From an uncultured bacterium (lineage in GTDB: Bacteria > Verrucomicrobiota > Verrucomicrobiia > CAIQCK01), in NCBI GenBank assembly GCA_903870275.1, contig CAIQCK010000010.1:1-64000 (forward strand): a stretch of DNA of 64,000 nucleotides, given 5' to 3'. The position numbers and the translations under genes are program-made. Numbering within the stretch: position 1 is the first letter of the stretch; every line of letters starts with the position of its first letter. Below are positions 1 to 62,886 of the stretch, piece by piece. The notes below the pieces were generated by a model. That model had not been told where the DNA came from, ran no database searches, and was given only the letters and a program-made list of their open reading frames with translations.

Positions 1-63
1 GACTCCGTCGAGCCTCCTTCTTGGGCGTGTCGAGCTTTCAGACTGCGGAGGCTCGACGGAGTC
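1..63. repeat. Inverted-repeat hairpin (17-bp perfect arms, REP-like)
   Basis: gactccgtcgagcctcc at 1-17 is the reverse complement of ggaggctcgacggagtc at 47-63. Confidence 0.8.
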
Positions 64-2362: not shown

Positions 2363-2817
2363 CAATCCCACACATACCGTTCGTCGAAATCCACCGCATA
2401 CCGCCGCAACAACTCGCGCAACTCGTCCTGAAACGACATCTTGCGATGATGCTCCTCCTGCTTGGCAATGTAATTCCGCACCGCTTCGATTTGCGAATAC
2501 CCGATGGAGAAAATCCCGTAACCGTTCTGCCACGCGAACTCCTCCAAACCCGGCCCCTTCGTCTTCAACCACAACGACGACCCGCGTTTCGACTCCTTGA
2601 TCACCGTCGCCGCATCGCGCGTGCGCGACAACGCACAGAGAAAATGCACATGGTCTTCCGCGCCGCCCACGATGACGGGCTGGCAATCGAGATTGGCGAG
2701 AACACCGCCGAGGTAACGGTGCAATTCTTCGCCGAGGGTTTTGTCGCGCAGAAACGGCCGGTGCTCTTTGGTCGAGAAGACCGTATGCACCAGAATCTTT
2801 GCGAGCGATTGCGGCAT
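2362..2817 (-). CDS. REP-associated tyrosine transposase (RAYT, Y1_Tnp/IS200-like)
   Basis: MPQSLAKILVHTVFSTKEHRPFL...AEDHVHFLCALSRT...QNGYGIFSIGYSQIEAVRNYIAKQEEHHRKMSFQDELRELL; HxH motif and Tyr typical of Y1 transposases. Confidence 0.92.
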   Translation of the reverse strand: MPQSLAKILVHTVFSTKEHRPFLRDKTLGEELHRYLGGVLANLDCQPVIVGGAEDHVHFLCALSRTRDAATVIKESKRGSSLWLKTKGPGLEEFAWQNGYGIFSIGYSQIEAVRNYIAKQEEHHRKMSFQDELRELLRRYAVDFDERYVWD

Positions 2818-2888
2818 GGCGGAATGATGGGCTTTTACGACGGTGGATTCAACCCTTTCAGGGTAGATGATTTTTGTTTTGTTGCTGT

Positions 2889-2950
2889 CCCAGGGTAGGC
2901 CCGTCTGACGGGCCAACCCTGGGCTGAGTGATGCAATCCCTTCGGGATTG
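2889..2950 (-). repeat. REP-like outer repeat, right flank of RAYT (inverted)
   Basis: cccagggtaggcccgtctgacgggccaaccctgggctgagtgatgcaatcccttcgggattg mirrors 2259-2322. Confidence 0.8.
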
Positions 2951-2974
2951 ATGCCACATGCGATGGCGTGTGCC

Positions 2975-3868
2975 TCATTGATCTTTGTAGCGATCAATGA
3001 GGGCATCTACGATACGTTGAACACAAGTCGCAACATCTGCATGGATAGCGGCCTCAGGGAACCGGAAAACTTTGTAACCCCTGCTCTTGAGGTAGCCGTC
3101 CTTCTTCCGGTCTCTCTTGACCATTTCGGGAAGCGAGTGCCAGTATTTGCCGTCGCACTCCACGACCAGTCGCGCCCCAGGTATTAGGGCGTCAACGACC
3201 CATAGACCGTCAATGACTTGCTGTTTTACGAACGTAACCCCGCGCCGCTCCAGTTCCTGATACATCTTCGCTTCGATGGCCGTTTCCCGAGGCATCGTAT
3301 AGTGCAATTTCTTCACCGGGATTCCAAGTTCCGCCATTCGCCGAAGAACCGTCCCGCGACCGACTCTCAGACGGACGGCAATTGCTGAAGCACTGAGACC
3401 TTCGACCTCATAGAGATACTGGAGACCATCTTTACAGATTTGCAGTTTGCGTTGACCCTTGTTCCAACCTGGGATGACATTAGACGGCTTAACGGAAACA
3501 AAAGGCGGAAGCCCAGCAGTCCGGCACGCAGCTTCCCATGACCCGCCCAAGCGTTGGATGAGTGTAGATGATCTCATCTGGGATCGCTCATCGAACTCAG
3601 TTGTTGACGGTGTCCTGCTCAGTTCGGACGCCACGCGTCTGAGTTCCTCCACCATTTCGATGTCCTGATACGTAAGCCCTGCTTTTTTCGGATCAAAACC
3701 AGCAGAGGCCAGAGCCTTTTTCCAGCCGCCAAATCGCGTGGCAACGGTAACCGGTGATACTTTGCTCTCGCGCCGGAATTCATCCATGCTCGGGATCTTG
3801 CCAAGCAACCTTGCGACTCGCCTCAATTCGGCCAGCAGGTATTCCCGCGGATATCTTTGCTGTGCCAT
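2975..3868 (-). CDS. Homing-endonuclease-associated-repeat protein with C-terminal Vsr/DUF559-like PD-(D/E)XK nuclease domain
   Basis: Two helical repeats (LRRVARLLGKIPSMDEFRRESKVS..., LRRVASELSRTPSTTEFDERSQM...), an HTH-like segment, then VVDALIPGARLVVECDGKYWHSLPEMVKRDRKKDGYLKSRGYKVFRFPE. Confidence 0.75.
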   Translation of the reverse strand: MAQQRYPREYLLAELRRVARLLGKIPSMDEFRRESKVSPVTVATRFGGWKKALASAGFDPKKAGLTYQDIEMVEELRRVASELSRTPSTTEFDERSQMRSSTLIQRLGGSWEAACRTAGLPPFVSVKPSNVIPGWNKGQRKLQICKDGLQYLYEVEGLSASAIAVRLRVGRGTVLRRMAELGIPVKKLHYTMPRETAIEAKMYQELERRGVTFVKQQVIDGLWVVDALIPGARLVVECDGKYWHSLPEMVKRDRKKDGYLKSRGYKVFRFPEAAIHADVATCVQRIVDALIDRYKDQ

Positions 3869-3885
3869 TACAGATTTCCCAGTGT

Positions 3886-4644
3886 TCACCGCTTCACCGG
3901 CTCTGCGTTCCACACCTTGATGTCGCCGAACCAGCCGTCTTTGCCGGCGACGCCGAGTTCGATCTTGGACTTGGTGGGGTGGGCGATGCCGGAGGACTTG
4001 AGGAAGGCGGCGGGTTTGCCGTCGAGGGTGACGCGCATTTCATCGCCGACGGTCTCGACGCCGAGGACATACCACTTGCCGGCTTCGAGCTTGGCGGGGT
4101 AGGTGATCTGGCGGCCTTTGAGGAGCTTGGCGACCTCGTCCTTCTTGGTCGGGTCGTTGCGCATGTCGCGGATCTCGTTCTTCATGCCGCCGTCGCGCTC
4201 GTCAATGATGGTGACGCCGTTGAGGCGGACCTGGGCGCGGCAAAGGTGGCCGTAGTGGGAGCCGGTGAATTTGCGGTCGTCGAACTCGACATCAATCATC
4301 GTGGCGCCCTCGAACTTGATCTTGCACTCGACGACGCTGTCCTTGGTGGGGATTTCCAGTCCGTGCACGGCGGCGTGGGCCTTGACCTCGGGTTTGCCGT
4401 CGGCGGCGGGGATGTTCTTGTCGCGGGTCTGCGTGCCCTTGAGCGCGCCGTCCTCGACGACGAAGGTCGCGACGACCTTGTGCCAGCGCTTGTCCGGCGT
4501 GGCGCCTTTGAAGTCGTCGGAGAAGAGGAGTTCTTTTTTCACGGCGACCGGCCCGGCCGGGATCTCCGGCAATTTGGGCGCGCTGGCGGCCAAGGCAACG
4601 GCGGTGATGAGGACGAGAGGGGCGAGGATGAGACGTGTGTTCAT
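3886..4644 (-). CDS. Secreted DUF1080/LamG-like protein
   Basis: Signal peptide; LLFSDDFKGATPDKRWHKV...EDGALKG...AGKWYVLGVETVGDEMRVTLDGKPAAFLKSSGIAHPTKSKIELGV pattern. Confidence 0.6.
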   Translation of the reverse strand: MNTRLILAPLVLITAVALAASAPKLPEIPAGPVAVKKELLFSDDFKGATPDKRWHKVVATFVVEDGALKGTQTRDKNIPAADGKPEVKAHAAVHGLEIPTKDSVVECKIKFEGATMIDVEFDDRKFTGSHYGHLCRAQVRLNGVTIIDERDGGMKNEIRDMRNDPTKKDEVAKLLKGRQITYPAKLEAGKWYVLGVETVGDEMRVTLDGKPAAFLKSSGIAHPTKSKIELGVAGKDGWFGDIKVWNAEPVKR

Positions 4645-4758
4645 AGTGGATTTGTGTTGAATGTGTCGGGCGATGTATAGCGATTTGACGCGGTGAGCGC
4701 AAGCCAGACGTGGGGTGGGGGCGGGGCATTCGAAAACTGTAGATATGGTCTTGGGGTG

Positions 4759-5754
4759 TCAAGCGGTTGCATAGTTGGGGTCGAAAGGTTTTTCATGCTT
4801 GAGGATGCCGAAGATGATGTGCAAGAGCTTGCGCATGACGGCACAGATCACCGCTTTCTTGCTTTTGCCTTTGGTGGCCAGCCGATCCGCAAACGCCTTC
4901 AGCAACGGATTTCTCCACCGCGCCACCAGCGCCGGCATGTAGAGCGCCGCTCGCAACGGCCGGCGGCCTTGCTTGCTGAGCCGGCTGGCTTGCCGCACGC
5001 TGCTGCCTGATTCATGCCGCCGCGGATGCAGTCCCGCCAAGGCCGCCGCCCGGCGCGCTTGCCGCAACTGTTGCGGGGGCGGCAATTCCGCCAGCACCCG
5101 CGCCGCACTGAGCCAAGCCACGCCCGGAATGCTGCACAGCAACCGGCTTTGCCGTTGCAGCATCGAGTCCTGATCCAAACATTGGCGGATGTGCTTGAGC
5201 AAGGTCTGCACTTCGGCCGTCAGCAGCCGGACCAACCGCTGGATTGAACCGGCCACTGCCGGCGCGGCTTGCGTCAAACGATTCTTCTCCGCGTGCAGCA
5301 ACCGTTGTACGTCCTCGAGCCGGCGCACCAACGCTTGCAGACGCGCTTGCTCTTGGCTGGGCGGCTGCCAGGCGGGCGGGCGTTGGCTCTGCACGAATTC
5401 GGCGATGAGTTCGGCGTCGGCACGGTCGGTCTTGTTGCGTTTGCCGCTGGCGGTGCCGTAGGCCTTGACGCGGTAGGGGTTGAGCACGCTGGTCCAGTGA
5501 TGATGCTCGTGCAACCAGCACGCTAACGCCAAGCCGTAGCGGCCGGTGGCCTCCAAGCCCACATGGACGCTGCCGACGTGCATCGCTTCCAGCCATCGCT
5601 GGAGTTGGCCAAAGCCGGTGGGGTTGTTATCGAAGCGGCTGGCGCGGCGCTGGCCGCTGTCGAGCAGCAAGACTGCATCGAAGCAGGCTTTGGAAATGTC
5701 CACGCCTAGGACGGTGTGGGGTGGTGTCTGCGGACCGGAATGAGTTGAGTTCAT
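4759..5754 (-). CDS. IS110 family transposase/recombinase (DEDD)
   Basis: VLGVDISKACFDAVLL, VGLEATGRYGLALACWLHEHHH, KTDRADAELIAEF, C-terminal LLCSIPGVAWLSAARVLAEL...GLHPRRHESGSSVRQASRLSKQGRRPLR. Confidence 0.95.
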   Translation of the reverse strand: MNSTHSGPQTPPHTVLGVDISKACFDAVLLLDSGQRRASRFDNNPTGFGQLQRWLEAMHVGSVHVGLEATGRYGLALACWLHEHHHWTSVLNPYRVKAYGTASGKRNKTDRADAELIAEFVQSQRPPAWQPPSQEQARLQALVRRLEDVQRLLHAEKNRLTQAAPAVAGSIQRLVRLLTAEVQTLLKHIRQCLDQDSMLQRQSRLLCSIPGVAWLSAARVLAELPPPQQLRQARRAAALAGLHPRRHESGSSVRQASRLSKQGRRPLRAALYMPALVARWRNPLLKAFADRLATKGKSKKAVICAVMRKLLHIIFGILKHEKPFDPNYATA

Positions 5755-5804
5755 CGAATAGCTCCAGAGTTGAGGTTTGAGGTCACGGCCGACGGCTTCG
5801 AGGC

Positions 5805-5972
5805 AGGGCCGGCTGGAGCACAAGCTTGTATGCGCGCTCGAGGGCGGTTAAGCTCTCGGCGCTGGATATGGTTCGGCTTACCAGCCGACAACGAGGCCAG
5901 GCAAGGGAGCTTATCTACAGTCGGGCTCGTAGCCCCAGCGGCGGCACAGTCTTCCCTTGCCTGCGCCTCGAA
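5805..5972 (-). ncRNA. IS110 bridge RNA (predicted target-binding and donor-binding loops)
   Basis: Noncoding, upstream of recombinase. Stem 1 5892-5908/5953-5970 encloses hairpin 5923-5935; stem 2 5810-5816/5881-5887. Guide segments match the target and donor junctions. Confidence 0.85.
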
Positions 5973-6025
5973 GTTGTCAGTGAAGGTCTTCTTGCCCATA
6001 AATGGGGGACGAGGGCAAGATACAA

Positions 6026-6092
6026 GCGGCGGTCTCTGACCGCCGGTCATTGATGATGGATGATTTCGGCGGTCAGAGACCGCCGCTACAGT
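6026..6092. repeat. REP-like palindrome pair (gcggcggtctctgaccgccg ... inverted), family A
   Basis: 20-bp perfect inverted arms 6026-6045/6067-6086; each arm is itself palindromic; second member at 62814-62886. Confidence 0.9.
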
Positions 6093-7955: not shown

Positions 7956-9863
<1,908 letters not shown>

Positions 9864-9867
9864 TCAT

Positions 9868-9950
9868 CGCAGTTCCCTTCGCCGGCATTACCCGGATCAG
9901 GTTCAGTGGGTCGCCCGAATATCTTCGGGCCTCTCAGCCTGGCCGTTGCG
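9868..9950 (-). promoter_or_regulatory. TPP riboswitch (THI element) upstream of thiC
   Basis: Minus strand has GGCTGAGAGGCCCGAAGATATTCGGGC...CCCACTGAACCTGATCCGGGTAATGCCGGCGAAGGGA. Confidence 0.95.
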
Positions 9951-9987
9951 ACCGGCCTCCGGCTCCCCAACGCAAAAAGAACACGCC

Positions 9988-62813: not shown

Positions 62814-62886
62814 CACTGTAGCGGCGGTCTATGACCGCCGAAATTCCGATGGCAACAGCCGGCGGTCATAGACCGCCGCTACAGTC
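62814..62886. repeat. REP-like palindrome pair, family A, uninterrupted copy
   Basis: actgtagcggcggtctatgaccgccg ... cggcggtcatagaccgccgctacagtc. Confidence 0.9.

What the first reader, a model, noticed from the sequence alone, without database searches (positions are those of the whole stretch)
4736..6092. IS110 bridge RNA decoded from sequence: target and donor guides match both element junctions
The noncoding leader upstream of the IS110 recombinase (minus strand) folds into two stem-loops. In loop 1, a left guide gccgccgct (plus 5937-5945) and a right guide gactgtag (plus 5915-5922, complement of CTACAGTC) flank a small hairpin; together they specify CCGCCG-CT-ACAGTC. The genomic junctions, minus strand, are ...gaccgccgCT|tgtat (6034-6020) and ...ccatat|CTacagtt (4748-4735), so the flanks rejoin as gaccgccgCTACAGT around a CT core. 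In loop 2, accatatc (5865-5872) equals the element right end (4742-4749), and atacaag (complement of cttgtat, 5825-5831) pairs with core plus left end (6020-6026), specifying donor ACCATAT-CT-TGTAT. IS110 bridge RNA logic (IS621-type) is established; this instance and its guide/target assignment come from the sequence here.
Basis: partly seen in the sequence, partly recalled or inferred. Interest (0 to 1): 0.9.

Follow-up and report, generated by a model that had tools for sequence, protein, structure and literature searches.

The report
Bridge-RNA transposon inside a REP repeat
This is a complete jumping gene of the recently described bridge-RNA kind (IS110/IS621): its own small RNA spells out both its own ends and a repeated palindrome of the host genome, into one copy of which it has inserted, so it is a clean new example of a known system rather than a new system.

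Summary
The finding holds. A covariance model built from 32 relatives, without this element, hits window 5800-5967 (-), E=1.6e-10. Ends of 47 relatives, defined by donor guides alone, have flanks that track their own loop-1 guides (mean 13.4/16 including the window; swapped flanks 9.9; none of 10,000 permutations above 10.7).

New here: joining the flanks restores an inverted pair of GTAG-type REP palindromes (a REPIN), intact elsewhere in this genome, which holds 117 exact arms against 0 in the control. The core CT lies inside CTAC, complement of the REP GTAG tag. Handshake positions and a split promoter across the circle junction (TTGACA-18-TATCTT) are present. The right donor guide pairs contiguously, without IS621's two-base bulge; the Ramlibacter/Variovorax group shares this.

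It is a new member of a known kind, IS621-type IS110. REP targeting by IS110 elements is already known. No orthologous empty site was found; expression and activity are untested.

The parts
4743..6026 (-). IS621-type IS110 element, 1284 bp counting one CT core; left end at 6026, right end at 4743
   Evidence: junctions read; blind decoding
4759..5754 (-). IS110 recombinase, 331 aa, ATG start, stop TGA 4759-4761; DEDD (D19, E68, D110, D113) and serine S249 present
   Evidence: PF01548 and PF02371, NF033542 218.6 bits, ISCro4 and IS621 structures 230 and 219 bits, invariant columns
5800..5967 (-). bridge RNA core: target-binding loop and donor-binding loop
   Evidence: covariance model from 32 relatives without the window, 42.7 bits, E=1.6e-10; fold z=-4.2
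5937..5945 (-). left target guide GCCGCCGCT (8 of 9 match ACCGCCGCT)
5915..5922 (-). right target guide GACTGTAG; pairs with CTACAGT of the flank, 7 of 7, eighth base unpaired at this site
5913..5914 (-). handshake guide AT after the RTG; complementary to donor positions 7 and 6 (T, A)
   Evidence: rule from PMC11208158
5865..5872 (-). left donor guide ACCATATC, 8 of 8
5825..5831 (-). right donor guide ATACAAG, contiguous 7 of 7, without the two-base bulge of IS621
   Evidence: two-base gap in the model alignment
5824..5824 (-). handshake base C after the RDG; complementary to target position 7 (G)
6025..6026 (-). CT core at the left junction
4741..4742 (-). CT core at the right junction
4757..4762 (-). 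TTGACA, -35 half of the circle-junction promoter, overlapping the recombinase stop codon
   Evidence: same arrangement in nearly all relatives
6017..6022 (-). TATCTT, -10 half of the circle-junction promoter; spacing 18 after RE-LE joining
4736..4742 (+). ACTGTAG, severed outer end of the interrupted REPIN
6027..6092 (+). rest of the REPIN: interrupted arm, spacer, and intact inverted arm ending CTACAGT at 6092

Best explanation
The feature is an intact IS621-type IS110 insertion sequence. The recombinase excises the element as a circle. Joining right and left ends would create a TTGACA-18-TATCTT promoter that drives a bridge RNA from the left end. Loop 1 of the RNA names a 14-bp target inside the host's GTAG-type REP palindromes (CCGCCG-CT-ACAGT) and loop 2 names the element's own end junction (ACCATAT-CT-TGTAT). 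A recombinase tetramer with bridge RNA exchanges strands at the shared CT. In this genome it has entered one arm of one REPIN lying between two genes, a site type offered more than 100 times per genome. Shown from sequence: the gene, catalytic residues, RNA homology, all four guides, junctions, repaired REPIN and junction promoter. Inferred from IS621: circle formation, transcription, RNA binding and recombination.
For: Recombinase family and catalytic residues. Blind decoding 30/31 against at most 27 in 1000 shuffles; IS621 as positive control gives its known ends with the same spacings, LTG-RTG 24 and RTG-LDG 49. Covariance model from relatives alone, E=1.6e-10. Loop-1 guides track own flanks across 48 elements, 13.4 against 9.9 of 16, no permutation of 10,000 above 10.7. 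Joined flanks restore a repeat that is intact elsewhere in the genome. Target motif 146 places with up to 1 mismatch against 5 in the reversed control; 117 exact REP arms against 0. Junction promoter in nearly all relatives, mean score 9.6 of 12 against 7.1 shuffled. Handshake bases match.
Against: Single copy in this genome, so no second insertion of this very element tests its guides. No orthologous empty site. The RDG lacks the two flipped-out bases seen in IS621, and the LTG has one mismatch to the site. No expression or activity data.
Confidence: 0.95

Rival explanations
1. A dead or inactive relic: the parts are inherited from an active ancestor, but this copy no longer moves, for example because the donor guide has lost the two-base bulge.
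For: Single copy although more than 100 target sites are available; RDG differs from IS621.
Against: Open reading frame without stops and all catalytic residues; all guides, cores and promoter halves intact; contiguous RDGs also occur in the Ramlibacter/Variovorax group, where several copies sit in one genome. Low copy number is common for insertion sequences.
Confidence: 0.15
2. Guide-flank matches are chance, because many short stretches can be chosen in a 270-base leader.
For: A permissive blind search reaches 22-27 of 31 on shuffled sequence.
Against: The window scores 30; register equals IS621; an independent model finds the RNA; relatives follow the same rule.
Confidence: 0.01
3. The leader is a riboregulator or mRNA leader controlling the recombinase, and target choice is made by the protein reading the palindrome.
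For: Antisense and sense small RNAs regulate the transposase of ISPpu9, another REP-inserting IS110 (PMC8450116, title and abstract seen). The target is a palindrome.
Against: Loop-1 sequence covaries with flanks over 48 elements with very different targets; IS621 target choice is RNA-programmed (PMC11208160).
Confidence: 0.03

Closest known systems
IS621 (E. coli; PMC11208160, PMC11208158; L098 here)
   Same: Recombinase about 40% identical end to end with the same catalytic residues; bridge RNA upstream of the gene; same order and spacing of LTG, RTG and LDG (24, 49); CT core; right donor CTTGTAT identical; handshake bases; promoter split across the circle junction; insertion at CTAC next to a REP hairpin.
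   Different: Different LTG/RTG, hence a different REP family; RTG pairs over 7 bases rather than 4; LDG ACCATATC instead of ACAGTATC; RDG contiguous (ATACAAG) instead of AT-TT-GCAAG; one base more in the TBL hairpin loop and a longer DBL hairpin.
ISCro4 (PDB 9t56)
   Same: Best solved-structure match by sequence, 230 bits over residues 15-326.
   Different: Its bridge RNA and target were not examined here.
IS110 elements of Ramlibacter/Variovorax (L169, L171, L172, L177)
   Same: Contiguous RDG (ATATCAG) like the window element; guides track flanks.
   Different: Right donor CTGATAT, targets such as CTCCTCCT-TTATT, not REPs with CTAC.
REP-inserting IS110 elements ISPa11, ISPpu9, ISPpu10, ISRm19 (PMC1525189)
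   Same: IS110 elements that break REP palindromes.
   Different: Other REP families and hosts; guides were not decoded in that paper.
Group 3 REPtrons, for example S. maltophilia (PMC8266576), and GTAG repeats (PMC3733652)
   Same: Target repeat has the same plan as the S. maltophilia REP: GTAG, 8-bp perfect stem, 3-base loop, 23 bases in all; arranged as inverted pairs; Y1 transposase genes lie amid the repeats.
   Different: Different stem sequence. REP mobility in this host was not tested.

Membership tests
IS110 family, IS621 type | RuvC-like DEDD domain plus Tnp domain with conserved serine | tested here: met
   PF01548, PF02371; D19, E68, D110, D113, S249 invariant with IS621 and others
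IS110 family, IS621 type | Long left end carrying the bridge RNA, short right end | tested here: met
   270 bases between core and ATG; 16 bases between stop codon and core; RNA at 5800-5967
IS110 family, IS621 type | Two-loop bridge RNA homologous to IS621 group | tested here: met
   42.7 bits, E=1.6e-10 with a model made without the window; A43, G48, A116, G121, A150, G155 equivalents present
IS110 family, IS621 type | LTG and RTG match target flanks; LDG and RDG match element ends; core included | tested here: met
   8/9, 7/7, 8/8, 7/7
IS110 family, IS621 type | CT core at both ends | tested here: met
IS110 family, IS621 type | Promoter formed at the RE-LE junction of the circle | tested here: met
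   TTGACA-18-TATCTT by sequence only
IS110 family, IS621 type | Discontiguous RDG pairing (two flipped-out bases), as in IS621 | tested here: not met
   Contiguous ATACAAG. A trait of IS621 and most relatives, not a defining trait of the family: 5 of 37 well-decoded elements lack it
IS110 family, IS621 type | Excision as a circle, RNA expression, RNA-guided recombination | not testable with these tools
   needs experiment
IS1111 group | Long right end carrying the RNA and subterminal inverted repeats | tested here: not met
   right end is 16 bases; RNA is in the left end
GTAG-type REP / REPIN (the target) | GTAG tag plus short perfect palindrome, high copy number, inverted pairs | tested here: met
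   CTGTAG-CGGCGGTC-NNN-GACCGCCG 117 exact copies, 0 control; inverted pairs of 66-72 bp
GTAG-type REP / REPIN (the target) | Associated Y1 transposase (RAYT) amid the repeats | tested here: met
   Two of 11 Y1_Tnp loci carry 5 and 4 REP arms within 3.3 kb, 0.05 expected; that these genes act on the repeats is inferred

The most novel reading that the evidence does not exclude
The bridge RNA of this element represents a sub-type with a contiguous right donor guide that arose more than once, and IS621-clade elements across several phyla have repeatedly evolved guides for the CTAC of GTAG-tagged REPs, the tag that guides the RAYT transposase, so that one mobile system uses another's conserved address as its landing site.
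Probability: 0.35. Interest if true: 0.55.

Novelty: new member of a known kind. Interest (0 to 1): 0.4.

Why it matters
It is a fully decoded bridge-RNA recombinase, about 40% identical to the characterised one, with an unusual but complete donor guide, so it gives a natural test of which RNA features are needed. It also shows a general, checkable pattern: 29 of 48 decoded IS621-clade elements, from several phyla, cut at CTAC, mostly next to a hairpin, which suggests that GTAG-type REPs are a widespread niche for this group. For the host, about 100 dispersed, mostly intergenic-looking copies of one guide-specified target make insertion cheap.

Tried and rejected
Rfam finds no bridge RNA family here at gathering or relaxed thresholds; the weak microRNA hits at 6021-6091 are the REPIN palindrome. 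A search of the genome collection with the single protein and with a nine-sequence alignment gave nothing usable; a three-sequence alignment worked. An orthologous empty site was sought in six genus and family relatives: the neighbouring gene is found in four, but the homology ends before the repeat. Testing relatives in the exact IS621 register alone failed (own 4.8, swapped 4.5 of 16), because most relatives have other spacings; a register window was needed. The handshake base after the RDG covaries only partly: where target position 7 is not C, 3 of 8 pair, so it counts as weak support. Some elements could not be decoded (for example L093, L094 and several viral-contig relatives), so failure of the rule there cannot be excluded.

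Full report
WHAT WAS CHECKED. All letters and coordinates of the finding are in the sequence. The recombinase is a 331-residue ORF (4759-5754, minus strand) with both IS110 Pfam domains, over the NCBIfam cut-off for IS110 RNA-guided transposase, and matching the ISCro4 and IS621 chains of the PDB over its whole length at 230 and 219 bits. D19, E68, D110, D113 and S249 are invariant in an alignment with IS621 and seven others.

BLIND DECODING. To avoid choosing matches by eye, I wrote a decoder that takes every CT upstream and every CT downstream of the gene as possible cores and looks for four guides in the order LTG, RTG, LDG, RDG. On 1000 shuffles the best was 27. IS621 itself, as a positive control, is decoded at its known ends, and the window has the same spacings (LTG to RTG 24, RTG to LDG 49).

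RELATIVES. Relatives were collected from plasmids, GTDB genomes and viral contigs. Ends were set by the donor guides only, with simple filters on the donor letters, giving 48 elements including the window. Their target flanks were then compared with their own loop-1 guides: mean 13.4 of 16, against 9.9 when flanks are dealt out among elements; no permutation of 10,000 passed 10.7. The guides allow some slack in position, which is why the swapped level is as high as 9.9.

RNA HOMOLOGY. Thirty-two relatives' RNAs, without the window, were aligned; the consensus helices show changes on both sides at all 12 pairs. The model made from them finds window 5800-5967 (-), 42.7 bits, E=1.6e-10; the next hit in the window is 7.3 bits. 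In this alignment the window lacks exactly two bases in the right donor guide. In IS621 these are the two flipped-out bases U159 and U160 (PMC11208158). Of 37 well-decoded elements, 32 have the bulge; the window and four Ramlibacter/Variovorax-like elements pair contiguously. The protein-contacted A and G bases named in that paper have equivalents here; two in the TBL hairpin are shifted by one base.

HANDSHAKE AND PROMOTER. After the RTG the RNA reads AT, complementary to donor positions 7 and 6, and after the RDG it reads C, complementary to target position 7, as the handshake model predicts. The right end carries TTGACA overlapping the stop codon and the left end TATCTT, 18 bases apart once joined. 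Nearly all relatives have TTGACN-17-TATNNT in the same place: mean 9.6 of 12 against 7.1 for shuffles. A promoter across the circle junction is reported for IS621.

THE TARGET IS A REPIN. Removing the element joins ACTGTAG to CGGCGGTC... and restores ACTGTAG-CGGCGGTC-TCT-GACCGCCG-spacer-CGGCGGTC-AGA-GACCGCCG-CTACAGT. Intact copies of this 66-72 bp inverted pair occur elsewhere in the genome with unrelated flanks, so they serve as paralogous empty sites. The arm occurs 117 times exactly in 7.1 Mb, none for the reversed control, and also in relatives of the genus, family and class. GTAG plus an 8-bp perfect stem and 3-base loop is the plan of the S. maltophilia REP (PMC8266576), and GTAG repeats are reported in Verrucomicrobia and other phyla (PMC3733652). 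Two Y1 transposase genes of this genome lie amid 5 and 4 such arms, the arrangement expected for a RAYT. The core CT of the IS is the CT of CTAC, the complement of GTAG.

A WIDER PATTERN. Of the 48 decoded elements, 29 have AC after the core, that is CTAC, where about 3 would be expected with equal bases, and the 26 bases before the core fold better than most of the upstream flank (median rank 0.06). So insertion next to a hairpin with the GTAG tag is frequent in this clade. This agrees with published REP targeting by IS621 and other IS110 elements (PMC1525189; PMC11208160). The elements are related, so the count is not a count of independent events.

LIMITS. This element is single-copy. The empty site is paralogous, not orthologous: the neighbouring gene 3889-4644 is found in four relatives, but the homology ends before the repeat. 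Transcription, circle formation and recombination are inferred from IS621, not shown.

VERDICT. Observation confirmed, interpretation supported; a new member of the IS621-type IS110 kind, with a minor variation in the right donor guide and a newly recognised REPIN target. Interest moderate.

Noticed in passing
window 2365-3006 (-): Y1 transposase gene (PF01797, 68.7 bits), RAYT-like, 1.7 kb from the IS110; not flanked by the REP that the IS targets. A second Y1 fragment lies at 427-642.
   Followed up: partly
L244 and L245 (G000 C31, about 83.1 kb and 47.2 kb): Y1_Tnp genes amid 5 and 4 arms of the target REP: candidate RAYTs for this REP family.
   Followed up: partly
window 62815-62885: A second, intact REPIN of the same family inside the window, with both CT target sites free.
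   Followed up: partly
window 1-63: Long inverted repeat GACTCCGTCGAGCCTCC...GGAGGCTCGACGGAGTC at the very start of the window, possibly another REP-like family.
   Followed up: no
window 9856-9979 (-): TPP riboswitch (Rfam RF00059, 65.9 bits) just upstream of a thiC-like gene at 7956-9833 (-).
   Followed up: no
window 2975-3913 (-): Protein with two homing-endonuclease-associated HNH repeats and a DUF559/MTES_1575 nuclease domain.
   Followed up: no
L063 (G003, same genus) 1275-1427: Another IS621-type bridge RNA (25.1 bits) beside a 36% identical IS110 gene, with a different target (CACGCCCT-ACATT).
   Followed up: partly
L129-L208: 29 of 48 decoded IS621-clade elements cut at CTAC, often beside a hairpin: REP targeting looks widespread in the clade.
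   Followed up: partly
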